Source: Mactromeris polynyma
Taxonomy: Eukaryota; Mollusca; Bivalvia; Venerida; Mactridae
Direction: 5' to 3'
Length of the DNA stretch: 64,000 nucleotides
NCBI GenBank assembly: GCA_032209605.1
Contig: JASFXZ010000001.1
Location: forward strand, 44,954,619 to 45,018,618
In this document: positions 13,573-58,620 of the stretch, piece after piece
How the letters are laid out: each line of letters starts with the position of its first letter
Numbering within the stretch: position 1 is the stretch's first letter
Made by a program: the position numbers and the translations under genes
The notes under the pieces: model-generated
The model's database searches: none
Seen by the model: only the letters and a program-made list of their open reading frames with translations
Told to the model about the DNA's origin: nothing

Positions 13573-15321
13573 TTAAAGTGAGTAATTATTTGAGTTTAAT
13601 ATTCTTATCCAATATTTTATTAAACGTATTTTACGTTCTACTACCATTGGGTGCCTGCCCAATTCACCATATAGTGCTGAGAGGTTGGTACTTTTTCTAA
13701 CATTTAGTATTTTTCTCATAAATTTACAATGAATTAACTCAATATCTTTTGCTGAATGGTATCCGAAAATTTCTGAGCCATAATTTAGAATTGATCCAAT
13801 TAGGCTATCGAACAGTTTAGTTTTTTCTTTAATGTTAAGGTTTAATTGATTATAGACAATACACAAATTGTGTAATGCATATAGCGAGTGTTGTGCAATA
13901 TGTTTTTGAGTCCGACTCCAGTTGCCATTCTTGAACAAGGTTATAGCCAAATATCTAAAGGATTCAACTATTTCTAGATTTGTATTATCGATTGTAAAGT
14001 TATACTTGGTTTTTCTCCCTTTTTCAAATATGATTACTTTAGATTTTGCTGTATTTACTTTTAAATCCCATTGGTCACAGTAGACGTTAAGGTCATTAAG
14101 CATTGACTGTAATGCATCGGGTGTCTGGGCAAAAATAACTGCATCATCAGCAAATAACAGTAGGAATAACTCGACATCGTTTATACTGCATATACCGTCT
14201 ATATTGTGATTGATATTAGATAAAATATCATTGACAAAAAATAAAAACATTAAACTGGAGCTCGGGTCCCCCTGTTTTACGCCTATATTTGATGTAAAAG
14301 ATGGAGACAAGCTTACTTTATATCGTACACACGCCTTGACAGCCTTATACATTGACTGTATAGCTTTTACAAAACGAGTACTAACATTTTCAGTTATAAA
14401 TTTGTAGAAAAGATGTGATCTCGTTATTGTATCGAAGCACTTTTCAAAGTCTATGAAACAACAATATAATTTCTTTTTTAAAGAAAGTGTTTTTGCTATG
14501 ACGGAATGTAGAATGTATATACAGTCTATTGTTGACTTCCCTTTTTGAAAGCCAAATTGGTTTTCAATGATTTTGTCATTGTTACTGCTCCATTTTGTTA
14601 GCCTATTTAACAATATTTGTGAATAGATCTTTGATAGAATATTAATGAGTGTTATTCCCCTATATTTCGTTGGGTCTTCAATATCCCCGCCTTTAAATAT
14701 AGGAACTATAATTCCTTCCCCAAAGTATTTTGGGTACTTCCCGGACATGAAGATATGATTATACAATTTTAAGAGGAAATTTGATATATGTGTAAATGTA
14801 CTCTTATATATCTCTGCGGTTATATTGTCTAAGCCACTACTTTTATTGTTATTTTGGGAGAAAACAGCAATTTTTAACTCTGATAGAGTAATTTCTTGAT
14901 CGAAATCTTCATCATTGATATTTTCTCGAAAGTTAAAGTTATTGTCATCGCTGTTGGTACTATATAATGTTTTGAAATGACCATACAGATCGGACACATT
15001 GAGATTTTCAGCAGTCTGTGTACGCTTCTTATACTGGTGCTTTACTTTTTTCCAAAACTCTTTAGGTTTAGATTTACTTAAATTAGCTAATATTTCTTTT
15101 TCTTTTACATTATAATTACACTTATTTATTCGTTTCGTTTTATTATAATTTGTTTTCGCTACAATATATTCACAGCGTAAATTGGCACAAGCCTTATTAC
15201 GAACAAATTTATTTCTCGCTTTCTTAAAATTGGTCCCGGCATTATAACAGTCTGCGTTAAACCACGGTTTTTTATTTGGGTGAGATTTTATGTTTGTTTT
15301 TGTCTTGTTTTCTGTTAGCAT
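13573..15321 (-). pseudogene. LINE reverse transcriptase
   Basis: A 582-codon frame with the RT motifs in order: GEGIIVPIFKGGD, YRGITLINILSKIY, NQFGFQKGKSTIDC, FIDFEKCFD (motif A), GVKQGDPSSSLMFLF (motif B), LLLFADDAVIF (motif C, catalytic DD near 14142-14153) and NTAKSKVIIF (motif D). It ends at an in-frame TAA at 13571-13573, after which the same frame continues for the C-terminal part, so the stop looks like a nonsense mutation. Confidence 0.9.
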
Positions 15322-15339
15322 ACAAGAAGCAGTCTTGCA

Positions 15340-17639: not shown

Positions 17640-19389
17640 AATATGATGCTAAATGAATTTTTTATACATGGATCTAAAAGTGTGAACTTTCTGAAATGTT
17701 TGACTTTTATTTTTGATAGATTATTTAATATAGGCTATTTTCCAGGCAGTTGGGCCGAAGGTTTTTTGTACCATTGCATAAAAAAGGTGATACGAACAAT
17801 CCAGGAAATTATAGAGGTATAACTTTATTAAGTACATTGGGTAAAATTTTTTTATTCTTCATGGTATAATTAACAAACTGATAAATGAAAACAAGAAATT
17901 ATATATAGCTTTTATAAATTTTACGGAAGCTTTTGATTATATTGTAAGAGATGTTATATGGTATAAATTGATTAAACTAGGTGTACGTGGAAAAATATTA
18001 GATATTGTTAGATCGTTGTATGATAATGTTAAAACTACATGTAGAGTTAAATATGATAATGTATTAGGTGATGAGTTTGCTTGTTTATTAGGAGTTCGTC
18101 AGGGTGAGAGTCTTACACCTTTTATTTTTACAATGTATTTGAATGATATAGAAGAGCATTTTATGACAAATGGATTTGATGGCGTGGATGTTGGTATGTT
18201 CAAGATATTTTTACTTCTATATGCCGATGATATTGTTATTATGTCGGAGAGTGAATCTGGTTTACAATTAGGATTAAATATATTACAAGATTATTGTCAA
18301 AAATGGAAATTAAGTGTGAATGTGGAAAAAAGTAGTCATGATTTCCAAAAAAGGTGGGACAAATAAAAGAAATATGAAGTTTATTTTTAATAATAAAGAG
18401 TTAGAAATAGTAAAAACAATTAAATACTTAGGAATCATTTTTACAATTGGGGGTTCTTTTAACGCTACATATGAAGCCCTGTCAGGCCAAGCTTTGAAAT
18501 ATTTATTTAAATTAAAATCATACTTCATTAATTTTCCAAACATGTCTGTCAGTCATAAGCTTGATTTATTTGATAAACTTATAGTTCCTGTACTTTGTTA
18601 TGGTAGTGAAGTTGGGGTTTTTACGAAGCAAATAAGATAGAAAGTATTCACTTACAATTTTGTAAACAAATATTGGGTGTAAGATCACAAACACAGAATA
18701 ATTTTATTTATGGAGAGCTAGGTAGATACCCATTAAAGATAAGGCGTTTATGTAATATTATTAGATACTGGTTAATTTTTTTTCGATGTCCTCAAGAAAA
18801 ATATACTAACGTTACATATAATATGATGTTAAAAACTTTAGAGCAAAACCCAAACAGTAAGTGTTGGGCAAAATATGTTCAAACTATATTAGAAACAAAT
18901 GGTTTTGCTGATGTTTGGCTGAATCAAGGAATTGGTGATGTAGACGCTTTTTTATCAATATTCAGACAACGACTTTATGATAATTATTTACAAAGTTGGA
19001 TTAGCGATGTAGAAAATTCATCTAGAGCTAGAACTTATAAATTATACAGTGCTTTTGGTTTTCAACCTTATTTAGATTTTATTAACATAGAAAAGTTTCG
19101 CTTTGCAATTTGTCGTCTACGAACATCTGCTCATAGATTAGAAAAAGAAGCCGGAAGATGGCATAAGCCTGTACAAATACCATATAACGAAAGAAAATGT
19201 AGATTATGTAATGTCCTTGAAGACGAGTTTCATTTTTTATTAGAATGTCCGTTATACCAAGAATTTTGTCAAGTTCATATTAAAAAATATTATTGGAAAA
19301 ATGCAAATATCATTAAATTTATTGACTTGATCAACAAAAAACAAAACTATTATAAGAAATATTGCCATGTACACTCACAAATCATTTGA
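17640..19389 (+). pseudogene. Broken LINE reverse transcriptase and zinc knuckle
   Basis: NPGNYRGITLLSTLGKI, FINFTEAFD (motif A with the catalytic Asp changed to Asn), GVRQGESLTPFIFTMYLND (motif B), LLYADDIVIM (motif C near 18219) and IYGELGRYPLK, ending with CRLCNVLEDEFHFLLEC. Several frameshifts and the lost Asp make it inactive. Confidence 0.85.
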
Positions 19390-39403: not shown

Positions 39404-39755
39404 ATGGCATCTACTCGTAGCGGCAGCACAGTGGGAGCACCATCATCGCAGTACAAGATAAAATGCAATACCTCCTCCATTTTGATTGGTGATCGAGAGT
39501 TTTTGTCGGCGACGGATGCATTGGAGGCGTATTTGAGTCAGTACGATGGATTCGGAGTGTTTACAAATACTACAACCTATAAACGATCTACTAATGACTT
39601 GCTCAACCCAAAATCAGCTCTGCATATGACTGCAGAGAGGTCGATAGAGACTGGGGTTCGAGCGACTGACACTGAATTGAGATTAGCGGATCAGAAAGAC
39701 AGTATTAATGAATCATTATTGAACATGAAGAAATCTGTGACCTTGAAAGCGGAAG
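39404..39755 (+). CDS. LAS2: LAS2-like exon 1
   Basis: Starts MASTRSGSTVG and carries SSILIGDREFLSATDALEAY, the best-conserved N-terminal segment. It ends GCGGAAG before GTAAGC, phase 1. An upstream AG at about 39328 (ATTTACAG) might close a 5' UTR intron. Confidence 0.85.
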
Positions 39756-42700
39756 GTAAGCACAACTTTTGTATTAAGTTTTTGTTCTTGTGACGTGAGC
39801 TTTGTGATTTGCTAAAATTCAGTACTTATAATGTTCTAATGTCATGGCAGTCTGCCTGAACATGCTAGATGAACCACAGGAGTCAAGAGTTATCTTCCTT
39901 TATCCCTTCTGTAGTGTATGGATAAAGGAAGAGAACTTGTGACAATCTCCTGTGAGTTTATGTTTTATCAAACTATTTTTGTCAAATATAATAAAACATT
40001 TCTTGATCCACAGCTAGCTGTATATATTTTGACTGGTCATCACTTTCAATATACTGGTAATTGTGGAGATGCAGTATTTTGAGAACCAGTCTTGATTTTT
40101 TCATTTTTGTTAATGAATAATTCATGGCTTAATCATTGAAGCGGTATGGCCTGTATATTTCTCTGCATCTCCGTGATACCTTGAATTCTATGTGTTGGGT
40201 ATACTGACAAAAATAGTAAATGAAGTTTAATACTGTAATAAATGAAAATGGTTGGCTATGATTAAAATTATATTCATTATCTCCAATTTTAACCCATTTG
40301 TATCTTGGTTTCTTCTTCTTTGAGAGAAACAACTTGCCAGTAATCTAGTGATATGTTTCCTCCGAGTAAACTTTACTATCCTAACTCTTTAGCTAAGAAA
40401 AATTATTACCGCAAGCAGAGGCAAAGAGGTATGTACATGTATTGGTCATTATTCACCTTACAATTCTGCATGACGATTCTAACCAGATTTACCCATTCTA
40501 ACTTGCAATGCAATACATGTATCTACGTACAAAGTCACTGAGGTTGTAAATTTGAGTTTGATTTTCACGTTAAAAACTTCTAAACTCTATTTTTACCAGG
40601 TTCATTGGAAATATTCTCTAAGCAGTGTCCATTACTGAGTAGAGGTTTGTGGAGATTTGGCCAATGTTGTAAATTGATATCTAGAGAATCGTTCATTACT
40701 GTCCAGAACTGAGTGCAGTGGGAATTGGAAAGTAGTTTTTTTTGTGACAATAAATTTGATGTCAATGTATGGTGGTGGGCTGTCAAGGCCTTTTTTGTAA
40801 CTGTTTTTAAGAGAAAAAAATACGATGATGTATCAATTTATTAATTATGGCCTAATATGGAATTGTGGGTATTTCAGCGTTGAAATCAGTCCAGAGATTT
40901 ACAACCTCATCGTCTGATACTGTATGTTATATTACTGCACACATTTATGCATTCATCATGTATTGATAAAAATGCATTTAATTTGGTAAAGGTGTTTGTA
41001 CACAGATAGTTTGATACAATATGTAGGTACATTTGCACATATGTAAACACATGGGTAATTAGTTGCACTTCTAATGAAAGAGCTATTAATAGACTTGAAT
41101 TTTTCCGAATTAAGTTCACTCACAGTTCGCTCACAGTTCACTCTAGGGTTTACTGCCTGTAACATTGAATTGATGAACATAAAATTATTGTCACATTGCA
41201 TGGTAGAATGACTTTTTCGAATTCTGATCAAACATTTTGTCAAACAGGTTGAAAGAAATAATTTTATTCTGTTTCATTGAGTCTGCAGATGATCATGTTC
41301 ATGTGTTGAACACAGGTGGCTGGTGAGTAGCCATGACATTTAAAACTCGCATTTCACTCTGTTCTTATAGTAAGATAAAGGTGTCCAACTTCATACGTAT
41401 TTACAATAAAAATATATACACACATTTGCTTTGACATACTTTTCAAAGCCATTTCTCCACCTATTTTTATCACTGATGTCTTAAAATACACACAAGGGAT
41501 TTATGTTGACAGTGTATATACTCAAAAACTATTCACAAACAGAATAGACTGTTTTTTTTATCGTCAAACATCAAGAATGGCTAGGTCGGACAACTTCCTA
41601 CCGTTAGACCGAGTCGGTATTTTCAGAACAAAACTACTATAAATCGCTATTCACCTGACAAACGACTATATTTCAATAAGAAACATTTAAAAAAGTATAT
41701 TGCAATATCAAACAACTTACAACATTTTTATTCTATGCAGGTTTAAAATGTCATGGCTACTCACCGGCCACCTGTGGTGTTGAATGTTTGGGTTGTTACG
41801 TTTTGTGTTCCTTCGCACGGCACTGTTGTCGGTGCAAACGTTTTGAATAGATGACATTTGTTGCATGTTACCCAGTACTGTTTTACCTTCTTTGTACAGT
41901 TCACACAAACATGGTGGATATATACAGTTCACACAAACAAGGTGGATATATACAGTTCACACAAACATTGTGGATATATACAGTTCACACAAACATTGTG
42001 GATATATACAGTTCACACAAACATTGTGGATATATACAGTTCACACAAACATTGTGGATATATGCAGTTCACACAAACATGGTGGATATATACAGTTCAC
42101 ACAAACATTGTGGATATATACAGTTCACACAAACATGTTGGATATATGCAGTTCACACAAACATTGTGGATATATGCAGTTCACACAAACATTGTGGATA
42201 TATACAGTTCACACAAACATTGTGGATATATACAGTTCACACAAACATGGTGGATATATACAGTTCACACAAACATTGTGGATATATACAGTTCACACAA
42301 ACATGGTGGATATATACAGTTCACACAAACATTGTGGATATATACAGTTCACACAAACATGGTGGATATATACAGTTCACACAAACATTGTGGATATATA
42401 AAGATATCCTAGTTAAACCTTTAATATCTGTAATAACCTGGAATCCTTTAAAACCTTCACTTTTCTGAAAAATCTGTAATGCACTCTCCAAATCTTTACA
42501 CATTTCCAATCAGTTTATTACATCTTAAGAGTAATGAATTTTACATTTATATTGTACTATTCACTTGATATAACTGCAGCCTAATGATGCTACTTGCCTA
42601 TATCATCTTAAATATTTGTGAAGGCAGTCTCTGATTGCCCTGAGGCAGGATCCTGTAAGCGGGTGCTTTGCCCACCTGTCTTGACTGCTTTGATCCATTG

Positions 42701-45700
42701 ATAGTCAACATTAGCCTTTATTTTCTTTTACAGAAATCCCCCTAAAAAACGTTCATTGTGCTAAATTGCAACCTTTGTTAAAACCTTCATTTTCATTGAG
42801 GTCGCTAGGAGGCCTGTATATTTGCATGAACACAGTTAATTTTCTTCATCAGTTGAAGATGCCTTGAACAAATCACAAGACCTAATACGACAGATCAATA
42901 CAGACGACTTCCCCAGTAAATCTAACGTTCCTAGTGAAGTGGGTAGCCTAGCAACAGACGTGTTGGTTTCCATTGATCCTACCACTGGATACAACGAATC
43001 CGCTGGTGGCGATACAGGGATGGTTCCGACTTGGAAAAGCAAGCATGTATATGGTTATAAACGTCCGAGAAGCAGACGATCAAAGACGTTGAGTAGTTTA
43101 CAGATTGCTCATGATATGATGGGTCTAACAACTGAACAACCTCAGCAAAGTTTCACTGCACAACCTAATGGTAATATATTACGTAGAGCTGTTATCGATT
43201 TAAACTGTAACGACGTATCGTCGATATATTTTAGCCGATGATTAATATTGATGCAAATTTTTTAAATACCCGACATTTCCGAAATAAGAAAGCCATGAAA
43301 ATAACTTGCAAATTTTGCACTTGGTTATATTATCTCCTACATGCAGCCATGTTAGTACAAGTATGTGTTACTGCTTTGTGAACCATGGTACAACATTTCT
43401 TGAGCTGAGACAACAAATTTTATCAGAGAATTTCAGGACAAAAATTTAGCTGCACAAACTTTTGGTGCACATGTATTCATAGAAGGATTCAAAGATGATA
43501 AAATTAATAATTTTGTAAAAATAAAAAAATGGATATAAAAGTAACAAAAAGTATAGGATAAAATTGTAGGGCATACACACAGAAATATTTAGAAAAAGTA
43601 AGAGATAATAGTCTGTTAACGAAATTCGAAAATATACTCGATATATTGTCATAACTTGTCTTTTTATATATAGATATTGTCAATATGTAAACATACAACA
43701 TTGTGTTTTGTATATTTAAGATCGTGTCACCCAGCATGTTAGGTTCCCAGATGACAATATGGATATACTCAACACTTCAAAACAGGAACCAGGCAAATAT
43801 GATGATGACGTATCTATCCTACTTGGTGACTCACCAGATACATCACGCTTGTCAAGGTCACCAACAAAAAGTCTTAGAGAACGAAGCCGATCTGTCTCCC
43901 CATCTATTCTTAAACGTGAAAGAAAAATGTTTGAGTCCGGTCTCAGAGACAAGCCTATACCAGATTATTATACTGACTTTAACGTGCCTGCTCCTAAGGC
44001 TCCAAGCTGGATTGATACCATGAATACGTCGGATGTGTCAGATTCGGACTGGCAGAAGCGTGATTTTACTGTATCAAAACCACCACCTAGTTGGGTACAT
44101 GACATTGACAATTCAGATATAACGAGTGTCGTATCGGCACCAAAGCCCACTAAAAAGTTGGAATTCCATGATTTACTCCGCCCACTTCCTGTGATTAATA
44201 CTCAAAATAATTCGTACAACAGTGAAGCTAATGATACTCTACCACCTCCTGGACTCACATACAAGGACTTAGTCAGCGATACTCCTAAGTTAAAATCTGC
44301 GAATACTCAACCTAAAGAAAGATCTGGCTCACCGTCTCTGTCAGAGAAACTAGACCTCTTGAAATCAAAGACAACTGCCACGTTGCAGCGTTACCATGAC
44401 CGTATGAAGACCGATATTAATTTGAATTCTCCAGCGAAGGACAGCTCTTTATATAATGGTGATAATGTTAGATGTTCCAGTTTAGACACTAATGCTTTGA
44501 TTGCGGGTATCGCACCTCCAGGAAGAAGTGACATCACTGGGGCCTCACCTATCACACCAGGTATCTCCATTTTCACTGTTTCCTATGATGATGCATTTAA
44601 GAAAGCAATATTTGACTGGATTTCTTATACATGTATTAAGAGTTTTCTCGACTTTCTTTAGGGAAATTTGCAGTTTCATGTTGCAAACATTACCACTTGT
44701 TCCTGTAGAATTTAGAATAAAGAATTTCTTAGAATTGAGATTTTAATTTCCGCATTTTCCACAAATTGATTTCTTATAAACTTGGGTCCAAGTGGTCATT
44801 TCTGTATGTTGCCAGTTTCTTTGATGATATTTTTGTCGTGTTTATTTGAGTAACCTTCAAGACTTGGGGTTCTTCCTAGGATTTGAAAACAGGAGTCCAA
44901 TACCAGGCTTTTGGAAACAGTTACAATCCTTCTATGTCAAAGAAATTTTGTCAGAAACGGGAGTCCCAGGAAAAAATAGGAGTCCAAAAAGTACAATAAG
45001 GAGTCTAGTGAGAACCCTGAGAAATCTAAATTTATTCTCCATTGGTTGTCATGGTTACGCAGATCTGTTGTTTAATTAATAGATAAAATAATACATTTTA
45101 TTACTTACAACAGGTGATCAAGATAGCTTTATTACAAGGGCCGGAAGCCCCGGGAAGTCGAGACGTCCTAGATCACCTGACACAGATATTATACTAGATG
45201 GTGACAGACCTTGGGAAAAAACAGCATCATAGTATGTGTTTATATAATACTTTAGATGAAAGTCCTAGTTTCATGTCTTTTACAATTTAACTTTGACCTT
45301 GTGGGGAATATATTTCTTAGTGTTTGTCTTATATTATTTCAAACTTTCATCTTCAGGATTTGGTACAGATCTGTGTCTTAACAAATACTTTCTGAAATAC
45401 AAAGTGGGGGCTCTATAGGAATCACACATGTTGTCCTGTCGAATCCCGTCACGTCCGGGCCTTTCATAAATCTATTTCTCTCCTAAACCACCTGCTGGAT
45501 TTCTATAAAAGTTCACACAAATGATTATACCAAGCGTAGGAGCATATCATCAGCACTTTCCAGTTGCGTGATATTTGATGGAGTTGTCACCCTTTAATGA
45601 TAGATAATGATGGAAAATTGTGCAAGTACTTGTTCCTATCCCTGATGTATTTCATTATTTGAGATGATTAAATGCATTTAAAACAAAAAAAGGAATGATG

Positions 45701-48700
45701 TGTGCACTGCTCCAGTCTTGTCTTGCATACTTATACAGTCAACTCTCAATACAACGACATTCGTTATAACGGAATATTCGTTTAAAGACACAAATTTGGT
45801 TGGAACGAATCTCTCATTTAATCATTAATCAAATTCAATGCAACGACATAAGGGAAACATGGTCGCTATAACGAGAGTCCACTGTATAAACAATAAGTTC
45901 TACTTGTGTATAATACACTTAACATGCTTCTGTGTTACTTGGCTTGTATTGTGTCATACCCCGTAGTTTATCAATCGTTTCAACCTTGTTTCCATTGATG
46001 AAAGCATGATCTAGTATTGAGTGCATGCACCTTACATACAGTTCTATTATTGGATAACTTCAAAGTTACTTATATTGCTTGAAATATTTAAAGGAATTTT
46101 ATACCCCATGAAGTGATAAGTCCTAGGATTTGCTTACCAATGAAAATTGTTACCAGCTGTTTTTGGCTGGATATGGGAATATATATACTCAAGTTACCAG
46201 CTGTTTTTGGCTGGATATGGGAATATATATACTCAAGTGTTAGTGAAGGTTGAGAAAAATATCAGTCGTCTTTTTTTCTTTGTTTTCCGTTAAAAATATA
46301 TTGATTGTCACCTTTGATAGTGTTTTTCTAAAGTTTACAAATCAGCCATGTTTGATGGTTGATAAGCTAGGTGGGATTTGTTGGGGATTATAGTTAAGCA
46401 TTTATTGAACTATTATCTCGAAATAAGAGATTTTTTCTGCTTAATTTTATCTTCAGTGATATCCACGAAAGCATTTATCTTGTCAAACACATTTTTTTAT
46501 CATCACATGTTTAGTAAAACCTTTAGATGTAATTTTTTGTCACATGCAGTTTAGAATCTCTTTGGAGTAGAACAGAAATACTTAACTGTTATACCATTTG
46601 TACATATGAAGTTTGGCACCAAATTTTAAGCTTTGTTAGACAGATATACATGTATGAATGTACATCAAGGTCCAGTCTGGGTTACCTGCTCCTACCACTC
46701 GGTTATCGGTAGCTATTACATGTAGTACTGTTACGCAGGATAGTACACCAGTCTAGGTTACCTGCTCCTACCACTTGGTTATCGGTAGCTATTACATGTA
46801 GTACTGTTACGCAGGATAGTACACCAGTCTGGGTTACCTGCTCCTACCACTCGGTTATCGGTAGCTATTACATGTAGTACTGTTACGCAGGATAGTACAC
46901 CAGTCTGGGTTACCTGCTCCTACCACTTGGTTATCGGTAGCTATTACATGTAGTACTGTTACGCAGGATAGTACACCAGACTGGGTTACCTGCTCCTACC
47001 ACTCGGTTATCTGTAGCTATTACATGTAGTACTGTTACGCAGGATAGTACACCAGACTGGGTTACCTGCTCCTACCACTTGGTTATCGGTAGCTATTACA
47101 TGTAGTACTGTTACGCAGGATAGTACACCAAACTGGGTTACCTGCTCCTACCACTTGGTTATCGGTAGCTATTACATGTAGTACTGATACGCAGGATAGT
47201 ACACCAGTCTGGGTTACCTGCTCCTACCACTCGGTTATCGGTAGCTATTACATGTAGTACTGATACGCAGGATAGTACACCAGTCTGGGTTACCTGCTCC
47301 TACCACTTGGTTATCTGTAGCTATTACATGTAGTACTGTTACGCAGGATAGTACACCAGACTGGGTTACCTGCTCCTACCACTTGGTTATCGGTAGCTAT
47401 TACATGTAGTACTGTTACGCAGGATAGTACACCAGACTGGGTTACCTGCTCCTACCACTTGGTTATCGGTAGCTATTACATGTAGTACTGTTATGCAGGA
47501 TAGTACACCAGTCTGGGTTACCTGCTCCTACCACTCGGTTATCGGTAGCTATTACATGTAGTACTGATACGCAGGATAGTACACCAGTCTGGGTTACCTG
47601 CTCCTACCACTTGGTTATCGGTAGCTATTACATGTAGTACTGATACGCAGGATAGTACACCAGTCTGGGTTACCTGCTCCTACCACTTTGTTATCGGTAG
47701 CTATTACATGTAGTACTGTTACGCAGGATAGTACACCAGTCTGGGTTACCTGCTCCTACCACTTGGTTATCGGTAGCTATTACATGTAGTACTGTTATGC
47801 AGGATAGTACACCAGTCTGGGTTACCTGCTCCTACCACTCGGTTATCGGTAGCTATTACATGTAGTACTGTTACGCAGGATAGTACACCAGTCTGGGTTA
47901 CCTGCTCCTACCACTTGGTTATCGGTAGCTATTACATGTAGTACTGATACGCAGGATAGTACACCAGACTGGGTTACCTGCTCCTACCACTTGGTTATCG
48001 GTAGCTATATCATGTAATACTGATACGCAGGATAGAACACCAGTCTGGGTTACCTGCTCCTACCACTTGGTTATCGGTAGCTATTACATGTAGTACTGAT
48101 ACGCAGGATAGTACACCAGTCTGGGTTACCTGCTCCTACCACTTGGTTATCGGTAGCTATTACATGTAGTACTGTTACGCAGGATAGTACACCAGTCTGG
48201 GTTACCTGCTCCTACCACTTGGTTATCGGTAGCTATTACATGTAGTACTGTTACGCAGGATAGTACACCAGACTGGTTTTGGAGATAAAAATTTCGGCTG
48301 TTGTTGGAAGATGGAAGATTTTTGCTTGATTTGCTTCCAAAGGTAAAATTGGTGGTAAAGTTTACTTTTGGATAATTGATACTGTTGTTGAAGAGAGGTT
48401 GTAACTTAAGAGAGGGTCACTGTAGCCAGCGGGGTGCTGAAGCTGGCATATTTATTGTAACACAATACTGACATTGTGGGTATAGTTCCAGGGGTCACTG
48501 TAGGCAGGCGGGGGTGCTGAAGCTGGCATATTTATTGTAACACAATACTGACATTGTGGGTATAGTTCCAGGGGTCACTGTAGGCAGGCGGGGGTGCTGA
48601 AGCTGGCATATTTATTGTAACACAATACTGACATTGTGGGTATAGTTCCAGGGGTCACTGTAGGCAGGCGGGGGTGCTGAAGCTGGCATATTTATTGTAA

Positions 48701-51700
48701 CACAATACTGACATTGTGGGTATAGTTCCAGGGGTCACTGTAGGCAGGCGGGGGTGCTGAAGCTGGCATATTTATTGTAACACAATACTGACATTGTGGG
48801 TATAGTTCCAGGGGTCACTGTAGGCAGGCGGGGGTGCTGAAGCTGGCATATTTATTGTAACACAATACTGACATTGTGGGTATAGTTCCAGGGGTCACTG
48901 TAGGCAGGCGGGGTGCTGAAGCTGGCATATTTATTGTAACATGATACTGACTTTGTGGGTATTGTTCCAGGGGTCACAAAATGCTGAGCAACATTATTCT
49001 TTTTCTTCTGCTTTCTTTCAGCAAAGCTCCAGTATCTGTTGACAAGAGAACCAATACAGCTGCTGATGAACAGGTTTGTTCTATATGTGTTTGTTTGATA
49101 TATGTTACCAATGAACAGCTTGTCTAATCTATGTAGCTTACTTTCTTATGTTTCACCCACATACTCATAGTGATGTTGTACTGTCAGTCTTCATGTCCTA
49201 AAGCTTGTCTGTGCTTTTCCTCCTGGATTTTGGATTTCAATGAAACTTTGGATGAGTTATTGGTACCAATCCTAGTTGTGTACATTATCAGCATTATTTG
49301 GTCAGATTATTTTTGGAAGAGTTATGGCCCTTTAGTGATGATATGGGGGGAACAAGTTTTCCCAAAAATAGATGGAATAGAGCGAGCTGTTGTCCATTCA
49401 TTTTGACCTTTTACTTTGGAGTCCTAATCATCAGTTACATTTGACAATTAAAACAAATTAGCATGGGCAGCAATAAAATAAAATATTTGTTAATCAGTCT
49501 CAGTGTTAATTCTATGGAGTTTTGCAAACCAAGCATTTACCCACTTAGACCCCTCAGGGACCATTTTGTTTTGAGTTCGGACCATTTTGATGGGTAGGTG
49601 TGAAAGCACTGACAACAACATGAATGTTTAAAAGTTTTAAGGATGTTTACAAATGAATGGTAAGCTCAATGGGTACAGTGCTTGACTGCCAATTTCATCA
49701 GATATTACATGCTGTGATTCATGTAGGAAAGTTGTCCAATTGCTTCCTGAAAAACAGATTAGTACTTTGTGGTGACCCAAGAACTCTGGTTAGATAAATT
49801 GACCAATGTAGCCATACATAACTAAATAATATTGAAAAAAGTCGAACACGAAAACCCCACAAATCATGAAAGTTATCTCAAGCGTTATCTAAAGATTAGT
49901 ATATATGTTTTCTGTTCGTAGAATTACTCCGGTGGGTCGCAGCCTGGAAGTTTGGAGTGTTTGAAGAATATGATATTCAAGTTACAACAAGAAGCCGTAC
50001 ATACAGACAGTGAAGATGAGGGATCGAGGACGAAGCTGTCAGAACGGGTTTGTTGCTTTATATTATGCTCTATAGGCACAGACTTATACTTTATTCTATA
50101 ATAATCAGGGGAGCTGTTGTGGTCAATGGGTAGAGCGCCTGGCCCTTGATCAGGAGGTCGTGAGCTTGAATTCTGCTGTGTGGAAGGTTGAACCACAAAC
50201 TTCACAATCCCCATCCTTGGTATCCAGGCTATTCATAACATTATGTATATTAAGAAAAACAAGGTATTTCTTATTTTAATTCTTTGGCATCTAGAGAGCT
50301 ATCTTGTACTATGTTCAGGGAAGATTTCATATATCAAGGATTTGACATTAAACTATTGTAACCTTGTCGACTGTGAGTTACTCTGGTTTTTGCTCCTAAC
50401 CTTTTATGTTTTGTATGTATATATATTTGTGATGAAAATAACCAGGATTCACACTATTGTAGAATGTAATGTGTTGTGATCAGTATGGCAATATATAGTT
50501 ACTGACTATCAAAGTGGCTTGCATTTACATTTTATACAAGTACAAATGATTTTTAAACATAAAAGTGACAACTCTAGAAACTTTGATTTGTTATTGATTT
50601 GAAGAGTTAACTAAAACTATAACACTCTGGATATGTTGTATAATTGTAGGTGCACAAGTTGAGTTAACTACATGTAATACTATAACACTCCGGATATGTT
50701 GTATAATTGTAGGTGCACAAGTTGAGTTAACTACATGTAATACTATAACACTCTGGATATGTTGTATAACTACATGTAATACTATAACACTCTGGATATG
50801 TTGTATAACTACATGTAATACTATAACACTCTGGATATGTTGTATAACTACATGTAATACTATAACACTCTGGATATGTTGTATAATTGTAGGTGCACAA
50901 GTTGAGTTAACTAAATGTAATACTATAACACTCTGGATATGTTGTATAACTACATGTAATACTATAACACTCTGGATATGTTGTATAATTGTAGGTGCAC
51001 AAGTTGAGTTAACTACATGTAATACTATAACACTCTGGATATGTTGTATAACTACATGTAATACTATAACACTCTGGATATGTTGTATAATTGTAGGTGC
51101 ACAAGTTGAGTTAACTACATGTAATACTATAACACTCTGGATATGTTGTATAACTACATGTAATACTATAACACTCTGGATATGTTGTATAATTGTAGGT
51201 GCACAAGTTGAGTTAACTACATGTAATACTATAACACTCTGGATATGTTGTATAACTACATGTAATACTATAACACTCTGGATATGTTGTATAACTACAT
51301 GTAATATTATAATACTGCAAAGAAAAATCCAGTAATTTCATTGGTTAAAAGCTCGCGTATAGGATTCTATATACACGGCGCTGACAGGGTATATGACGTT
51401 TTTCCCTTCATGCGCCTCGTGACAATTTTCGCTGACGGCTCGACTCGAAAACTTTTATCTCTTGATATCCGCAAGTTACTAGAAATTGACAATTGATCTT
51501 CACACCTGATTCAATAAATATTGAACAGAGTACATGTGTGCTAGTATTAATATTCAAAACGATCTATTTTTTAAGGTTTGAGCCAAATTCAGTTCGATAA
51601 AGTCCATGAGATCAGACGCTTGAAAATAAAAATTAGAGTGCAAGCGCGCGCTTAACCATGTGTATTGAGGTACCTTACGGGGTAATGCAATTAATTTTCA

Positions 51701-54700
51701 GGCATTATAACGTGTGAGTGAAATAAAAGAAACTTGATCTATAACAAGTAATTCTCGATATATTTTTAAAGGAATACGTTTTAATAACTGATATTTTACA
51801 AAATTAAAACGCTCTAAACAATTTTATGAACCCAAAACCCCAAAAATACACAGATCTAATTATTAGATCTAGAGATCGAGCTAGGCATCGAAACATTGCT
51901 TGTTTAACTAAATTCGTATGAAAACATGGAATTGCAGTATTATAAATTCGTTATACAGGTTGTTGACAGGGTATATGGGGGGAATATAACCAGTCTGCGA
52001 TTCATATAACCCTCGGCTAACGCCTCGGGTTATATGGCACACACACTGGTTATATCCCCCCATATACCCTGTCAACAACCTGTATAACTAATACTATAAC
52101 ACTCTGGATATGTTGTATAACTACATGTAATACTATAACACTCTGGATATGTTGTATAATTGTAGGTGCATGTAATACTATAACACTCTGGACATGTTGT
52201 ATAACTACATGTAATACTATAACACTCTGGATGTGTTGTATAATTGTAGGTGCATGTAATACTATAACACTCTGGATATGTTGTATAATTGTAGGTGCAT
52301 GTAATACTATAACACTCTGGATATGTTGTATAATTGTAGGTGCATGTAATACTATAACACTCCGGATATGTTGTATAATTGTAGGTGCATGTAATACTAT
52401 AACACTCTGGATATGTTGTATAACTACATGTAATACTATAACACTCTGGATGTGTTGTATAATTGTAGGTACATGTAATACTATAACACTCTGGATATGT
52501 TGTATAATTGTAGGTGCATGTAATACTATAACACTCTGGATATGTTGTATAACTACATGTAATACTATAACACTCTGGATGTGTTGTATAATTGTAGGTA
52601 CATGTAATACTATAACACTCTGGATATGTTGTATAATTGTAGGTGCACGTAATACTATAACACTCCAGATGTGTTGTATAACTACATGTAATACTATAAC
52701 ACTCTGGATATGTTGTATAATTGTAGGTGCATGTAATACTATAACACTCTGGATATGTTGTATAATCGTAGGTGCATGTAATACTATAACACTCTGGATA
52801 TGTTGTATAACTACATGTAATACTATAACACTCTGGATGTGTTGTATAATTGTAGGTACATGTAATACTATAACACTCTGGATATGTTGTATAATTGTAG
52901 GTGCACGTAATACTATAACACTCCAGATGTGTTGTATAACTACATGTAATACTATAACACTCTGGATATGTTGTATAATTGTAGGTGCATGTAATACTAT
53001 AACACTCTGGATATGTTGTATAATTGTAGGTGCATGTAATACTATAACACTCCGGATATGTTGTATAATTGTAGGTGCATGTAATACTATAACACTCTGG
53101 ATGTGTTGTATAATTGTAGGTGCATGTAATACTATAACACTCTGGATGTGTTGTATAATTGTAGGTGCATGTAATACTATAACACTCTGGATGTGTTGTA
53201 TAATTGTAGGTGCATGTAATACTATAACACTCCGGATATGTTGTATAATTGTAGGTGCATGTAATACTATAACACTCTGGATATGTTGTATAATTGTAGG
53301 TGCATGTAATACTATAACACTCCGGATATGTTGTATAATTGTAGGTACATGTAATACTATAACACTCTGGATGTGTTGTATAACTACATGTAATACTATA
53401 ACACTCTGGATATGTTGTATAATTGTAGGTGCATGTAATACTATAACACTCTGGATATGTTGTATAATTGTAGGTACATGTAATACTATAACACTCCGGA
53501 TATGTTGTATAATTGTAGGTACATGTAATACTATAACACTCCGGATATGTTGTATAATTGTAGGTACATGTAATACTATAACACTCTGGATATGTTGTAT
53601 AATTGTAGGTGCATGTAATACTATAACACTCTGGTTATGTTGTATAATTGTAGGTACATGTAATACTATAACACTCCGGATATGTTGTATAATTGTAGGT
53701 ACATGTAATACTATAACACTCTGGATATGTTGTATAATTGTAGGTACATGTAATACTATAACACTCCGGATATGTTGTATAATTGTAGGTACATGTAATA
53801 CTATAACACTCCGGATATGTTGTATAATTGTAGGTACATGTAATACTATAACACTCCGGATATGTTGTATAATTGTAGGTACATGTAATACTATAACACT
53901 CTGGATATGTTGTATAATTGTAGGTACATGTAATACTATAACACTCCGGATATGTTGTATAATTGTAGGTACATGTAATACTATAACACTCTGGATATGT
54001 TGTATAATTGTAGGTGCATGTAATACTATAACACTCCGGATATGTTGTATAATTGTAGGTACATGTAATACTATAACACTCCGGATGTGTTGTATAATTG
54101 TAGGTGCATGTAATACTATAACACTCTGGATATGTTGTATAATTGTAGGTGCATGTAATACTATAACACTCTGGATATGTTGTATAATTGTAGGTGCATG
54201 TAATACTATAACACTCTGGATATGTTGTATAATTGTAGGTACATGTAATACTATAACACTCCGGATATGTTGTATAATTGTAGGTGCATGTAATACTATA
54301 ACACTCCGGATATGTTGTATAATTGTAGGTGCACAAGTTGAGTTAACTACATGTAATACTATAACACTCTGGATATGTTGTATAACTACATGTAATACTA
54401 TAACACTCTGGATATGTTGTATAATTGTAGGTGCACAAGTTGAGTTAACTACATGTAATACTATAACACTCCAGATATGTTGTATAACTACATGTAATAC
54501 TATAACACTCTGGATATGTTGTATAATTGTAGGTGCATGTAATACTATAACACTCCGGATATGTTGTATAATTGTAGGTACATGTAATACTATAACACTC
54601 CGGATATGTTGTATAACTACATGTAATACTATAACACTCTGGATATGTTGTATAACTACATGTAATACTATAACACTCCGGATATGTTGTATAATTGTAG

Positions 54701-57700
54701 GTACATGTAATACTATAACACTCTGGATATGTTGTATAACTACATGTAATACTATAACACTCTGGATATGTTGTATAATTGTAGGTGCATGTAATACTAT
54801 AACACTCTGGATATGTTGTATAATTGTAGGTGCATGTAATACTATAACACTCCGGATATGTTGTATAATTGTAGGTACATGTAATACTATAACACTCTGG
54901 ATGTGTTGTATAATTGTAGGTGCATGTAATACTATAACACTCTGGATATGTTGTATAATTGTAGGTGCATGTAATACTATAACACTCTGGATATGTTGTA
55001 TAATTGTAGGTGCATGTAATACTATAACACTCCGGATATGTTGTATAATTGTAGGTACATGTAATACTATAACACTCTGGATGTGTTGTATAATTGTAGG
55101 TGCATGTAATACTATAACACTCCGGATATGTTGTATAATTGTAGGTGCATGTAATACTATAACACTCCGGATATGTTGTATAATTGTAGGTGCATGTAAT
55201 ACTATAACACTCCGGATATGTTGTATAATTGTAGGTGCATGTAATACTATAACACTCTGGATGTGTTGTATAATTGTAGGTACATGTAATACTATAACAC
55301 TCCGGATATGTTGTATAATTGTAGGTGCATGTAATACTATAACACTCCGGATATGTTGTATAATTGTAGGTGCATGTAATACTATAACACTCTGGATGTG
55401 TTGTATAATTGTAGGTGCATGTAATACTATAACACTCTGGATATGTTGTATAATTGTAGGTGCATGTAATACTATAACACTCTGGATATGTTGTATAATT
55501 GTAGGTGCATGTAATACTATAACACTCCGGATATGTTGTATAATTGTAGGTGCATGTAATACTATAACACTCTGGATATGTTGTATAATTGTAGGTACAT
55601 GTAATACTATAACACTCTGGATATGTTGTATAATTGTAGGTACATGTAATACTATAACACTCTGGATATGTTGTATAACTACATGTAATACTATAACACT
55701 CTGGATATGTTGTATAATTGTAGGTACATGTAATACTATAACACTCTGGATATGTTGTATAACTACATGTAATACTATAACACTCTGGATATGTTGTATA
55801 ATTGTAGGTACATGTAATACTATAACACTCTGGATATGTTGTATAATTGTAGGTACATGTAATACTATAACACTCTGGATATGTTGTATAATTGTAGGTG
55901 CATGTAATACTATAACACTCTGGATATGTTGTATAATTGTAGGTACATGTAATACTATAACACTCCGGATATGTTGTATAATTGTAGGTACATGTAATAC
56001 TATAACACTCCGGATATGTTGTATAATTGTAGGTGCATGTAATACTATAACACTCTGGATATGTTGTATAATTGTAGGTACATGTAATACTATAACACTC
56101 CGGATATGTTGTATAATTGTAGGTACATGTAATACTATAACACTCTGGATATGTTGTATAATTGTAGGTGCATGTAATACTATAACACTCTGGATATGTT
56201 GTATAATTGTAGGTACATGTAATACTATAACACTCTGGATATGTTGTATAACTACATGTAATACTATAACACTCTGGATATGTTGTATAATTGTAGGTAC
56301 ATGTAATACTATAACACTCTGGATATGTTGTATAACTACATGTAATACTATAACACTCTGGATATGTTGTATAATTGTAGGTGCATGTAATACTATAACA
56401 CTCTGGATGTGTTGTATAATTGTAGGTGCATGTAATACTATAACACTCTGGATGTGTTGTATAATTGTAGGTACATGTAATACTATAACACTCCGGATAT
56501 GTTGTATAACTACATGTAATACTATAACACTCTGGATATGTTGTATAATTGTAGGTACATGTAATACTATAACACTCCGGATATGTTGTATAATTGTAGG
56601 TGCACAAGTTGAGTTAACTACATGTAATACTATAACACTCTGGATATGTTGTATAACTACATGTAATACTATAACACTCTGGATATGTTGTATAATTGTA
56701 GGTGCACAAGTTGAGTTAACTACATGTAATACTATAACACTCCAGATATGTTGTATAACTACATGTAATACTATAACACTCTGGATGTGTTGTATAATTG
56801 TAGGTGCATGTAATACTATAACACTCCGGATATGTTGTATAATTGTAGGTACATGTAATACTATAACACTCTGGATATGTTGTATAACTACATGTAATAC
56901 TATAACACTCTGGATATGTTGTATAATTGTAGGTGCATGTAATACTATAACACTCTGGATATGTTGTATAATTGTAGGTACATGTAATACTATAACACTC
57001 TGGATATGTTGTATAACTACATGTAATACTATAACACTCTGGATGTGTTGTATAATTGTAGGTGCATGTAATACTATAACACTCTGGATATGTTGTATAA
57101 TTGTAGGTGCACAAGTTGAGAACAGAAGCAGCAAATCTTGGTATACAAGTTCCTGGTGATAGAATCGAAGGTAGAACTGACAAAGTGACTGGAGAGATAC
57201 CTTCATTACAAGGTTATGATTTCCACGGAGAGCCCGGGGGTCAAAATTTGGAAAAGTGAGTTTTACTACCAGGATTGTAAATTATGTAGACATAGTTAGC
57301 TGAATCTTTGTAATACAAAAATATACTTAACACAATTACAAACACAACTATTTCACTTAACCTTCATTTTGTTCCAAGTGTTAAATGCATTTTATTGTTA
57401 CAAATACGTAAATAATTTACCAAAAAGAAATCAAACTATGGCTCTAGTATTCATATTTCATAATTGATTGAGTTTTAGAAATTATGTTTTAGAATTAAAA
57501 TATAATTATTTCTTTATAATGTCATTGTGTTGAGGCAAACAGTGTTTAGTTGCGTATTTAATGGAGTCGGGTATATTACTGATTTGATAGAACTTTAAAT
57601 GTTAGCTGTTATTGAGAACTTTAAATGCTAGCTGTTATTGAGAACTTTTAAATGCTAGCTGTTATTGAGAACTTTAAATGCTAGCTGTTATTGAGAACTT

Positions 57701-58620
57701 TAAATGCTAACTGTTATTGAGAACTTTAAATGCTAGCTGTTATTGAGAACTTTAAATGCTAGCTGTTATTGAGAACTTTAAATGCTAGCTGTTATTGAGA
57801 ACTTTAAATGTTAGCTGTTATTTCACCAATACTGTGAGTGTAACCATTGTAGCAAGTGGTCATCAATTTTATAAGATACAATAGTGTAACTTTGTTAACT
57901 AACAACCTTAGGTTCAAGTGTCGTACCACCCAAAGTTACTGGGATAACATCATTTGGTTTAGTAACAATGTAGTATTGGAAATGTTCATTAAGTTATTGG
58001 TTGTAAATTGTTTCATCTGCCTGTTAAAAGTTAAATCAGGGGCCATATTCACGAACACTTTAAGACTGAAACTCAGACATAAAAATTCCAAAATTTATAT
58101 TTACCTGACTTTCATTTTTGTTCAATCGAAACAAACTAAATTTTGTCTAAATAGTTGTTATTACCCACTCTAAGCTTAAGCCAATATTTATTAAAATTGG
58201 TATTGTAATAACAATGTTAGAGCGAAAAGAACTCTTAACATTTTGAATTATAATTCTGAGTTTTAGTCTTAAAATGTTTGTGAATAAGGTCCCTGGTGTG
58301 AGACACGTGATACTGTGTCACTAATGTTTTAATGGTGAATGTGTTGCAGTGGCATTTCACAGTTCTAGATGGCACATAGCGGAGACCTAGAGTGATCGTC
58401 AAATTTTACGATTAATAAATGACTTTCTCAAAATCATGTCTGCTATGTAATGTGTACTAATTATATCATTTGTCATTCTATTCCATTCTTTATCAACAGG
58501 GCATTGGTACATCTTGATCGATTAAAGAATTTAGTCAACATACAGCAACCTAAAGGTGACGGTCAGACAGTAGGTGCTGGAGTTACTCCCCTTTGTGCTA
58601 ACATGGAAAATGAGAAATAA
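39404..58620 (+). CDS. LAS2: LAS2-like protein (C18orf54 family), complete eight-exon gene
   Basis: Joined coding exons: 39404-39755, 42853-43170, 43721-44560, 45114-45231, 49022-49073, 49922-50047, 57107-57255, 58500-58620; 2,076 bp, 691 residues. All introns are GT-AG and phases agree at each junction. The start ACCATGG is a good Kozak site. Segments that match what I recall of vertebrate LAS2: DREFLSATDALEAYL near the N terminus, DRPWEK and SYKAPVSV, SLECLKNMIFKLQ, and ALVHLDRLKNLV at the C terminus. The middle is low-complexity, rich in Ser, Pro and charged residues, with two related motifs APSWID and PPSWVHDID. LAS2 was named from a mouse lung adenoma susceptibility locus; its molecular role is little known. 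Introns here hold at least six minisatellites and several MITEs. The protein is longer than the vertebrate one, mainly through exon 3. Confidence 0.8.
39877..39957. repeat. Short hairpin element in intron 1
   Basis: CACAGGAG with TTATCTTCCTTTATCC pairs with GGATAAAGGAAGAGAACTTG and CTCCTGTG. A related segment (GATTGTCACAAGTTC, CCTTTATCC) lies at the right edge, 63961-63990. Confidence 0.55.
40349..40428 (+). other. Candidate alternative exon
   Basis: Between CTAG and GAG/GTATGT a frame reads MFPPSKLYYPNSLAKKNYY with basic residues after it, and looks coding. It needs phase 2 on entry and leaves in phase 1, so it cannot join exon 1 (phase 1) directly. It may be alternative, first-exon or decayed. 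Confidence 0.3.
40878..40921 (+). other. Candidate alternative micro-exon
   Basis: TATTTCAG, 44 bases, then GTATGT. In phase 1 it reads ALKSVQRFTTSSSDT, but its exit phase 0 does not fit exon 2, which is open only in phase 1. Confidence 0.3.
41311..41775. mobile_element. hAT-type MITE with 8-bp target duplication
   Basis: Flanked by GTGTTGAA at 41303-41310 and 41776-41783. Ends are CACAGGTGGCTGGTGAGTAG and the inverted CTACTCACCGGCCACCTGTG; the inverted repeats extend to about 37 bp through CATGACATTTAAAA. No coding capacity. It lies in LAS2-like intron 1. Confidence 0.85.
41896..42400. repeat. 28-bp minisatellite, 18 copies, in LAS2-like intron 1
   Basis: Units hold CAGTTCACACAAACATTGTG and GATATATA; TTG/TGG and TATAC/TATGC vary. 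As 28 is not a multiple of three and no stop occurs in the unit, all three plus frames stay open. It ends about 450 bp before exon 2. Confidence 0.95.
42853..43170 (+). CDS. LAS2: LAS2-like exon 2
   Basis: Follows TTCATCAG; phase 1 at both ends. Contains SQDLIRQINTDDFPSKSN and a basic stretch YGYKRPRSRRSKTLSSLQI, possibly a nuclear localisation signal. Donor GTAATA. Confidence 0.8.
43721..44560 (+). CDS. LAS2: LAS2-like exon 3 (long)
   Basis: 840 bp, phase 1 at both ends. It encodes a Ser/Pro-rich, probably disordered region with RSPTKSLRERSRSVSPS (possible SR-like phosphorylation sites) and the paired motifs KAPSWIDTMNTSDVSDS and PPPSWVHDIDNSDITS. Donor GTATCT. Confidence 0.85.
45114..45231 (+). 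CDS. LAS2: LAS2-like exon 4
   Basis: Follows TACAACAG; encodes ITRAGSPGKSRRPRSPDTD and LDGDRPWEKTASY. Exit phase 2 into exon 5. Donor GTATGT. Confidence 0.85.
45736..45884. mobile_element. pogo/Tigger-like MITE in intron 4
   Basis: Ends CAGTCAACTCTCAATACAAC and CGCTATAACGAGAGTCCACTG are inverted repeats of about 22 bp, flanked by TA on both sides (45734-45735, 45885-45886). TA duplication and CAGT..CTCTCGTTATAAC ends are typical of the pogo branch of Tc1/mariner. Confidence 0.8.
46150..46237. repeat. 44-bp perfect duplication
   Basis: Two identical units with TTACCAGCTGTTTTTGGCTG and GGGAATATATATACTC, a minisatellite at its first step. Confidence 0.9.
46672..48271. repeat. 76-bp minisatellite, 21 copies, in LAS2-like intron 4
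   Basis: Units hold CTGGGTTACCTGCTCCTACC, TCGGTAGCTATTACATGTAG and GATAGTACACCA. Variable sites: CTCGG/CTTGG, TGTTACG/TGATACG, AGTCTGG/AGACTGG. Near-constant length implies homogenisation. Confidence 0.95.
48411..48978. repeat. 80-bp minisatellite, 7 copies, just before exon 5
   Basis: Units hold GGTGCTGAAGCTGGCATATT and TATAGTTCCAGGGGTCACTG. The central five copies are practically identical. Each unit contains TTCCAG|GGG, an acceptor-like site, and the array ends about 45 bp before the true acceptor of exon 5. Confidence 0.95.
49022..49073 (+). CDS. LAS2: LAS2-like exon 5
   Basis: Follows CTTTCTTTCAG, a strong acceptor; completes the Tyr codon of exon 4 and encodes KAPVSVDKRTNTAADEQ. Ends in phase 0 before GTTTGT. 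Confidence 0.85.
49190..49420. repeat. Dispersed repeat in intron 5
   Basis: Phrases such as TTTCAATGAAACTTTGGATG and GGAAGAGTTATGGCCCTTTA are widespread in invertebrate genomes as an unnamed interspersed repeat (from memory). Ends unclear. Confidence 0.4.
49922..50047 (+). CDS. LAS2: LAS2-like exon 6
   Basis: Follows CTGTTCGTAG; exactly 42 codons. GSLECLKNMIFKLQQEA is the conserved amphipathic helix, followed by an acidic TDSEDEGSR. Donor GTTTGT opens the intron that contains the giant array. Confidence 0.85.
50105..50225 (+). mobile_element. tRNA-derived SINE head in intron 6
   Basis: GTCAATGGGTAGAGCGCC (A box), CTTGATCAGGAGGTC, then GAGCTTGAATTC (decayed B box). A short non-tRNA tail follows. 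Confidence 0.5.
50604..51305. repeat. Splice-site-derived minisatellite, left block
   Basis: Units of 63 and 39 bp, all sharing TACTATAACACTCTGGATAT. The 63-bp type includes TGTATAATTGTAGGTGCACA and AGTTGAG, identical to the acceptor and first 14 bases of exon 7 at 57093-57120. The block is cut at 51306 by a MITE. Confidence 0.95.
51306..51946. mobile_element. MITE inserted in the array
   Basis: ATTATAATACTGCA at the left (51306-51319) and TGCAGTATTATAAAT at the right (about 51932-51946) are inverted ends. The interior is unique, AT-rich and without coding capacity, with TTTCATTGGTTAAAAGC near the left end. Confidence 0.6.
51948..52088. mobile_element. Foldback element, about 140 bp
   Basis: Arms TACAGGTTGTTGACAGGGTA and TACCCTGTCAACAACCTGTA are perfect inverted copies and extend inward through ATATGGGGGG and ATAACCAGT; an inner ATAACCC..GGGTTAT pair also folds. 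The right two thirds recur at 17145-17240. Confidence 0.75.
52089..57106. repeat. Splice-site-derived minisatellite, main block
   Basis: Roughly 110 units, mostly 45 bp (TAATTGTAGGTRCATGTAAT), with 39-bp units lacking the TAG and a few 63-bp units near 54330-54450 and 56600-56720. The last unit runs without a break into exon 7 at 57107. All three lengths divide by three, so frames of about 1,640 (+) and 1,720 (-) codons cross the block. They are repeat artefacts: the block lies between exons whose phases match and which match a known protein. Confidence 0.95.
57107..57255 (+). CDS. LAS2: LAS2-like exon 7
   Basis: Begins GTGCACAAGTTGAGAACAGA straight after the last repeat unit's TGTAG; phase 0 in, phase 2 out. 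It encodes VHKLRTEAANLGIQVPGD and further residues to NLEK. Its first 14 bases are copied many times in the upstream array. Donor GTGAGT is strong. Confidence 0.85.
57591..57822. repeat. 26-bp minisatellite, 9 copies, in intron 7
   Basis: Units hold AACTTTAAATGCTAGCTG and TTATTGAG. One copy has an extra T. Confidence 0.95.
58039..58295. mobile_element. MITE of the GGGCCTTATTC family, copy 3, in intron 7
   Basis: Left end GGGGCCATATTCACGAACAC and AAGACTGAAACTCAGA; right end TCTGAGTTTTAGTCTTAAAA then GTGAATAAGGTCCCTGG. Complete with both inverted ends. Confidence 0.75.
58500..58620 (+). CDS. LAS2: LAS2-like exon 8 (last)
   Basis: Follows TTATCAACAG; completes the Lys codon and encodes ALVHLDRLKNLVNIQ, the conserved C-terminal helix, then a variable tail ending MENEK and TAA. 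Confidence 0.85.

What the first reader, a model, noticed from the sequence alone, without database searches (positions are those of the whole stretch)
50604..57120. Minisatellite built from an intron-exon boundary: a row of decoy 3' splice sites before LAS2-like exon 7
The 63-bp unit equals intron sequence plus TGTAG plus the first 14 exon bases (GTGCACAAGTTGAG). At the array's left edge the host reads GAAGAGTTAACT and at the right edge GTTGAGAACAG, so the founding tandem duplication probably joined at the shared GAG. The 45-bp unit lacks 18 bp and the 39-bp unit lacks 24 bp of the 63-bp unit, so the series is clear. Every 45- and 63-bp unit keeps the same bases upstream of TAG as the true acceptor, so the splicing machinery cannot choose the true site from intron sequence alone; only the exon bases after position 14 differ. 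In the gene's frame each decoy meets TAA within six codons.
Basis: partly seen in the sequence, partly recalled or inferred. Interest (0 to 1): 0.88.

Follow-up and report, generated by a model that had tools for sequence, protein, structure and literature searches.

The report
Splice-site mirage array in clam gene
In a gene of what is most likely a bivalve, the junction where an intron meets an exon is present in nearly a hundred tandem copies, so that 96 near-copies of the splice signal stand in front of the predicted real one; such "mirage" repeats are already described in amphioxus, and the cell likely still finds the right exon because only that site is followed by a complete exon.

Summary
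Window 50607-57120 is a minisatellite of 127 core copies (86 spacings of 45 bp, 29 of 39, 10 of 63, one of 826 that holds a 787-bp insert). The 63-bp unit contains the end of intron 6 and the first 14 bases of exon 7. There are 97 TAG|GT junctions: the predicted true acceptor and 96 decoys. Every decoy meets TAA at codon 6. A search of the 793-Mb assembly found the unit only here. Eight of 12 homologues keep V-x-K-L at the exon start, so the exon came first and the array was copied from it. A second such array, at a donor site, turned up in a dynein heavy-chain gene of the same genome (1 of 38 exon matches examined). This is a known kind: minisatellite duplications of intron-exon boundaries are called "mirages" in amphioxus (PMC3087553). 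What differs here is the likely bivalve host and the size. "LAS2-like" got no Pfam support; homologues are uncharacterised. How splicing copes is inferred: likely exon definition, with mis-spliced RNA re-spliced (every junction reads AG|GT) or destroyed. No RNA data could be examined.

The parts
49922..50047 (+). coding exon 6 (predicted), ends ...ACGG|gtttgttg, next exon in phase 0
   Evidence: gene model with consistent phases over 8 exons, 691 aa; aligned with bivalve homologues
50048..57106 (+). intron 6, 7059 bp, mostly array
50607..51306 (+). left block of the boundary minisatellite: first unit (57 bp), then 63- and 39-bp units
51307..52093 (.). 787-bp repetitive element inserted among 39-bp units; joining the flanks restores an unbroken array
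   Evidence: with 40 of 1396 candidates scored, 43 matches elsewhere cover at least 749 of the 782 bases queried at 95-99% identity
52094..57120 (+). right block: mostly 45-bp units, with 39- and 63-bp units; ends with the first 14 bases of exon 7
50644..50663 (+). first decoy acceptor TTGTAG|GTGCACAAGTTGAG, 602 bp after the exon 6 donor
57056..57061 (+). last decoy acceptor TTGTAG (next base 57062), 45 bp before the true one
57101..57106 (+). true acceptor TTGTAG of exon 7 (predicted)
57107..57255 (+). coding exon 7 (predicted), VHKLRTEAANLG..., donor AAAA|gtgagttt; its first 14 bases are the ones present in the 63-bp units

Best explanation
The array is a "mirage" minisatellite, tandem copies of a short stretch that spans the end of intron 6 and the first 14 bases of exon 7, which put 96 decoy splice signals before the predicted true one, and the gene likely still works because only that site is followed by a whole exon with its own donor. 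Shown by sequence: the boundary content of the unit, the 97 TAG|GT junctions, the stop after every decoy, the exon start kept in 8 of 12 homologues, and an open 691-codon gene model. Inferred: the founding duplication (57-63 bp, possibly joined at a shared GAG), growth by slippage or unequal exchange, and shortening of some units by internal deletion (18 or 24 bp). Predicted: exon definition picks the acceptor nearest to the exon 7 donor; a decoy choice would put a stop codon in the mRNA and would be removed by nonsense-mediated decay or, because each junction reads AG|GT, by a second splicing step from the rebuilt donor. The array probably has no function of its own.
For: Unit structure and counts. 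A search of the 793-Mb assembly gave 125 matches to the unit, all in this array (that tool gives lower bounds for repeats). The gene's C-terminal part has one clear locus. VHKL at the exon start in 5 of 12 homologues, V-x-K-L in 8 of 12. A shorter Mya model (P0009) lacks exactly the residues of exon 6 and resumes at the V of exon 7, which fits the same boundary there. Second boundary array in a dynein heavy-chain gene, donor side: 9 core copies, 7 of 8 units with the last 8 exon bases, 5 CGAG|GT and 2 CGAG|GC decoys, next exon in phase. The genome is rich in tandem arrays: 21 in 200 kb. U1-pairing energies: exon 6 donor -6.3; rebuilt junctions -6.1 (GTGCAC, GTGCAT) and -6.4 (GTACAT). [quoted passage not shown] Amphioxus mirages are said not to interfere with regular splicing (PMC3087553 section 16).
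Against: No RNA was seen, so that exon 7 starts at 57107 rests on homology and frame. In PMC9225289, competing 3' sites show a general preference for the upstream one, reduced under exon definition. The five nearest decoys would make extended exons of only 194-452 nt, a size exon definition could accept. The true acceptor has the lowest pyrimidine share of the gene's seven (55%). RNA folding gives the true site no clear advantage: accessibility rank 47 of 97 and 24 of 97 in two settings, local fold z = -0.83. All three unit lengths are multiples of 3, which neutral growth does not require (noticed after the fact). Four of 12 homologues do not keep the exon start.
Confidence: 0.78

Rival explanations
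1. Recursive, self-clearing array: the spliceosome would take early decoys first, each join of exon 6 to a decoy rebuilds a donor (CGG|GT), and intron 6 would be removed in many steps until the true exon is reached.
For: All 97 junctions read AG|GT; the rebuilt donors pair with U1 about as well as the original exon 6 donor; the first decoy lies 602 bp from the donor against 7059 bp for the true site, so it is transcribed first. Recursive sites are defined as tandem acceptor-donor pairs (introduction of PMC8605326).
Against: The donors are not GTAAGT-like and the tract before the AG is only 55% pyrimidine; the nearest decoy would leave a residual intron of 45 nt, probably too short (recalled); the true junction would rebuild the same donor and put exon 7 at risk of skipping. 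AG|GT does not vary, but only 5 of the first 39 positions of the 45- and 63-bp units vary at all, so this is no evidence of selection.
Confidence: 0.15
2. The array regulates the gene: decoy use would create a poison extension with a stop, and copy number would tune expression.
For: Every decoy leads to TAA at codon 6.
Against: The stops follow directly from the intron sequence in the units; no conservation evidence; the gene has further arrays in introns 1, 4 and 7, none of which overlaps an exon, so arrays here need no function.
Confidence: 0.06
3. The exon start was captured from the array (exon derived from the repeat) rather than the reverse.
For: Exon 7 begins exactly with array sequence.
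Against: V-x-K-L at this point in 8 of 12 homologues, including Dreissena and Mya, while the unit was found only at this locus.
Confidence: 0.03

Closest known systems
[quoted passage not shown] the Adh3 paper it cites, PMC117041, is not held)
   Same: Repeat unit spans intron end and exon start; units of 10-160 bp; many units carry AG/GT signals; both boundaries of an exon can be hit, as here (acceptor array, and donor array in the dynein gene)
   Different: Likely bivalve host; 127 core copies and 96 decoys against 3 and 6 units in the two haplotypes of amphioxus BflGb6; two internally shortened unit types; an element inserted in the array. RT-PCR and length differences were reported there, not testable here
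Intron gain by tandem duplication across an intron-exon boundary, potato RdRp gene (PMC4974935, abstract and section 5 read)
   Same: A tandem duplication includes the 3' end of an intron and the 5' end of the next exon, carrying acceptor signals with it
   Different: One duplication there, with the new intron shown by RNA reads; here serial copies and no sign of a gained exon
Recursive splicing ratchet points (PMC8605326, abstract and introduction read)
   Same: Acceptor and donor directly joined (AG|GT)
   Different: Drosophila ratchet points are well conserved and generally have stronger donors than their exons; here near-identical serial copies with weak donors and no evidence of use
Internal tandem repeats at exon-intron boundaries in human segmental duplications (PMC2812944, passages read)
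   Same: Minisatellites at boundaries that can generate novel introns
   Different: About 4 units of 30 bp on average, found by comparing paralogues
Introns gained by repeat expansion in Cryptococcus gene CNN00420 (PMC2395259, passages read)
   Same: Repeat copies that include splice signals
   Different: Whole introns are repeated and spliced, supported by ESTs
Human IFI6 (6-16) minisatellite with multiple splice donors (recalled; no passage seen)
   Same: A minisatellite offering many splice sites
   Different: Donor sites; not checked here

Membership tests
Mirage (boundary minisatellite) | Tandem minisatellite-like repeats whose unit spans an intron-exon boundary | tested here: met
   unit = intron end + TAG + first 14 exon bases
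Mirage (boundary minisatellite) | Many units keep AG/GT splice signals | tested here: met
   97 of 127 core copies (96 decoys + true)
Mirage (boundary minisatellite) | Homogenised interior with a divergent edge | tested here: inconclusive
   First unit is 57 bp and differs; mean divergence within a length class 1-3%; no tree built
Mirage (boundary minisatellite) | Length instability between haplotypes or cells | not testable with these tools
   One assembly, one locus found
Mirage (boundary minisatellite) | Normal splicing persists | not testable with these tools
   No RNA data
Recursive splicing ratchet point | Tandem acceptor-donor pair | tested here: met
   All 97 junctions AG|GT
Recursive splicing ratchet point | Strong acceptor tract and strong GTAAGT-type donor (consensus recalled) | tested here: not met
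   GTGCAC, GTGCAT and GTACAT donors, U1 energy in place -5.2 to -5.5 against -11.6 for a perfect site; 55% pyrimidine before the true acceptor
Tandem-duplication intron gain | A new intron actually spliced | not testable with these tools
   No RNA data
LAS2 (lung adenoma susceptibility 2) family | Match to a family profile | tested here: inconclusive
   0 Pfam families at E<=1 for the 691-aa protein; whether Pfam holds a LAS2 model was not checked

The most novel reading that the evidence does not exclude
Bivalve genomes carry mirages by the thousand, and those that survive do so because their junctions read AG|GT: each unit is then a GT...AG mini-intron, any wrong splice rebuilds a donor, and the transcript clears the array stepwise, making this one of the longest recursive-splicing ladders and a steady source of new introns.
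Probability: 0.12. Interest if true: 0.85.

Novelty: new member of a known kind. Interest (0 to 1): 0.5.

Why it matters
It is a natural competition experiment: 96 decoys, 6 of them identical to the predicted true site for 42 bases upstream and 14 downstream, precede it. Counting which acceptors are used would test directly whether 3' splice sites are chosen by first-come order, by local intron sequence or by exon definition. A second case among 38 exon matches suggests that boundary minisatellites may be common in this repeat-rich genome, and so a possible route to intron gain outside cephalochordates.

Tried and rejected
RNA structure hiding the decoys: no clear advantage for the true site. 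Known RNA elements: no Rfam match in the window at gathering scores. Large internal duplications as sign of unequal exchange: the longest repeated run of unit types is 5 (200 shuffles: mean 3.7, maximum 6), so no signal, though the longest exact repeat is 278 bp at an offset of 102. Selection on AG|GT: it does not vary, but few positions do. Unit lengths as multiples of 3: some other arrays of the window share this and some do not, taken as chance. A retrocopy of the gene to prove the exon 6-7 join: none seen; the only match outside the locus was weak (E 0.6). Human DDX3Y minisatellite (PMC3039753, passages): a promoter case, not this kind. Recursive splicing by lariats (PMC10156609, passages): background only. 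Earlier work on boundary minisatellites: searches; no listed title or abstract start names one in a mollusc. Wider survey of dynein exons: 38 of 254 listed matches were examined, in clusters chosen for density before any array was seen; the rest could not be fetched.

Full report
WHAT IS THERE. The window lies in contig 1 (58.8 Mb) of an unnamed 792,805,942-bp assembly. The gene is an eight-exon model from 39404 to 58620 coding for 691 residues, with all phases consistent. A protein search with residues 480-691 gave 12 homologues (E<=10); the closest is a hypothetical protein of Mactra antiquata (78%), and Mercenaria, Dreissena, Mya, Sinanodonta and Aplysia follow among the named ones, so the host is most likely a heterodont bivalve. 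No Pfam family matched at E<=1, and the named homologues are called uncharacterised or hypothetical, so the label LAS2-like stays unproven, though not refuted.

THE ARRAY. Between 50607 and 57120 the core ACTATAACACTC occurs 127 times, spaced 45 bp (86 times), 39 bp (29), 63 bp (10) and 826 bp (once). The 63-bp unit holds the end of intron 6, TTGTAG, and GTGCACAAGTTGAG, the first 14 bases of exon 7; these 14 bases occur 11 times, 10 of them in decoys. The left edge reads GAAGAGTTAACT, the internal join AAGTTGAGTTAACT and the right edge AAGTTGAGAACAG, which fits a founding duplication that shared GAG; three shared bases are weak evidence and this step is inferred. The first unit is 57 bp, not 63. 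The 45-bp unit lacks 18 and the 39-bp unit 24 bases of the 63-bp unit. In all 86 units of 45 bp the acceptor's AG is the only AG; 25 of 29 units of 39 bp contain no AG and 4 contain one. Units differ by 1-3% on average within a length class.

THE DECOYS. There are 97 acceptors of the form T(T/C)GTAG|GT. Against the predicted true one at 57107, 78 of 96 decoys are identical over 20 bases upstream, 47 of 96 over 38, 18 of 96 over 50, 1 of 96 over 100 and none over 200; six are identical over 42 bases upstream and 14 downstream. In the gene's frame 86 read VHVIL* and 10 VHKLS*. The true acceptor has the lowest pyrimidine share of the gene's seven (55%; the others 60-95%).

DIRECTION. VHKL at the start of exon 7 is present in 5 of 12 homologues and V-x-K-L in 8 of 12; two of the eight are Mya models, and 4 of 12 do not keep it. 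A search of the whole assembly found the unit only here (125 matches, all in this array; that tool's counts are lower bounds and a missing match does not prove rarity). So the exon is most likely old and the array was copied from it. A Mya model (P0009) lacks exactly the exon 6 residues and resumes at V, which fits the same exon boundary in that species; it is a predicted protein, not RNA evidence.

THE INSERT. 51307-52093 is a 787-bp element among 39-bp units; joining the flanks gives an unbroken array. It has many copies: with 40 of 1396 candidates scored, 43 matches elsewhere cover at least 749 of the 782 bases queried at 95-99% identity, some in tandem. The array, including its 39-bp unit type, is therefore older than this insertion.

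A SECOND CASE. To ask how unusual this is, dynein heavy-chain exons were located with four Pfam families (254 matches) and 38 of them, in 24.3 kb, were compared with tandem arrays. One of 38 was overlapped: an exon at C190:1963795-1964010 (minus strand) ends ...CTATCGAG|GTAATATAACC and is followed by 9 core copies, mostly 48 bp apart; 7 of the 8 units carry the last 8 exon bases, 5 with a CGAG|GT decoy donor and 2 with CGAG|GC. An open stretch LEKQVKAEGNVEVWL after ttacag, in phase 0, continues the coding sequence. Reading on from the exon into a unit meets a stop at the third codon. One in 38 is a rough figure with a wide error. In 200 kb of the window's own contig, 21 arrays (period 15 or more, 3 or more copies) cover 13.5% of the sequence, a third of that in one 9.4-kb array, so founding duplications that hit exon boundaries are likely frequent, whether or not they survive.

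HOW IT LIKELY WORKS. No RNA was available. [quoted passage not shown] Against it, the same data show a general preference for upstream 3' sites, reduced in that mode, and the five nearest decoys would make exons of 194-452 bases. Mistakes would be lost to nonsense-mediated decay or corrected: joining exon 6 to a decoy rebuilds CGG|GTGCAC, CGG|GTGCAT or CGG|GTACAT, with U1 energies of -6.1, -6.1 and -6.4 against -6.3 for the original donor. That energy is a crude measure and does not show use. RNA folding does not clearly favour the true site.

WHAT IS KNOWN. [quoted passage not shown] they were proposed as a source of introns (PMC3087553). This array meets the defining structure. A single such duplication produced a spliced intron in potato (PMC4974935). 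The present case is a member of that kind, in a likely bivalve and much larger than the amphioxus globin examples. I did not search for mirages in molluscs by name and make no priority claim.

VERDICT. A real, well-read observation; ordinary in its likely origin, striking in size, and a good natural test of splice-site choice.

Noticed in passing
G000 C190:1963420-1964010, minus strand (L047, L048): Donor-side boundary minisatellite at a dynein heavy-chain exon: 9 core copies, 7 of 8 units with the last 8 exon bases, 5 CGAG|GT and 2 CGAG|GC decoys.
   Followed up: yes
51307-52093: 787-bp repetitive element, many copies at 95-99% identity, some in head-to-tail tandem, with a hairpin near its right end; family not determined.
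   Followed up: partly
whole window: 18 merged tandem arrays (period 15 or more, 3 or more copies; two of them are the blocks of this array) cover 15,252 of 64,000 bases, some in other introns of the same gene.
   Followed up: partly
52021-57156 (+) and 52053-57281 (-): The unit lengths 39, 45 and 63 are multiples of 3, so frames of 1712 and 1743 codons stay open across the right block; a trap for gene prediction.
   Followed up: no
G000 C113:3920096-4045982: Dynein_C exons recur in eight similar copies, several spaced about 18 kb apart.
   Followed up: no
G000 C31:126348-128730 and C289:1239840-1242223: Matching sets of Dynein_C exons on two contigs: a duplication or an uncollapsed haplotype.
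   Followed up: no
13576-15339 (-), 17845-18363 and 18610-19386 (+): Long open frames that look like retrotransposon reverse transcriptases (recalled resemblance, not searched).
   Followed up: no
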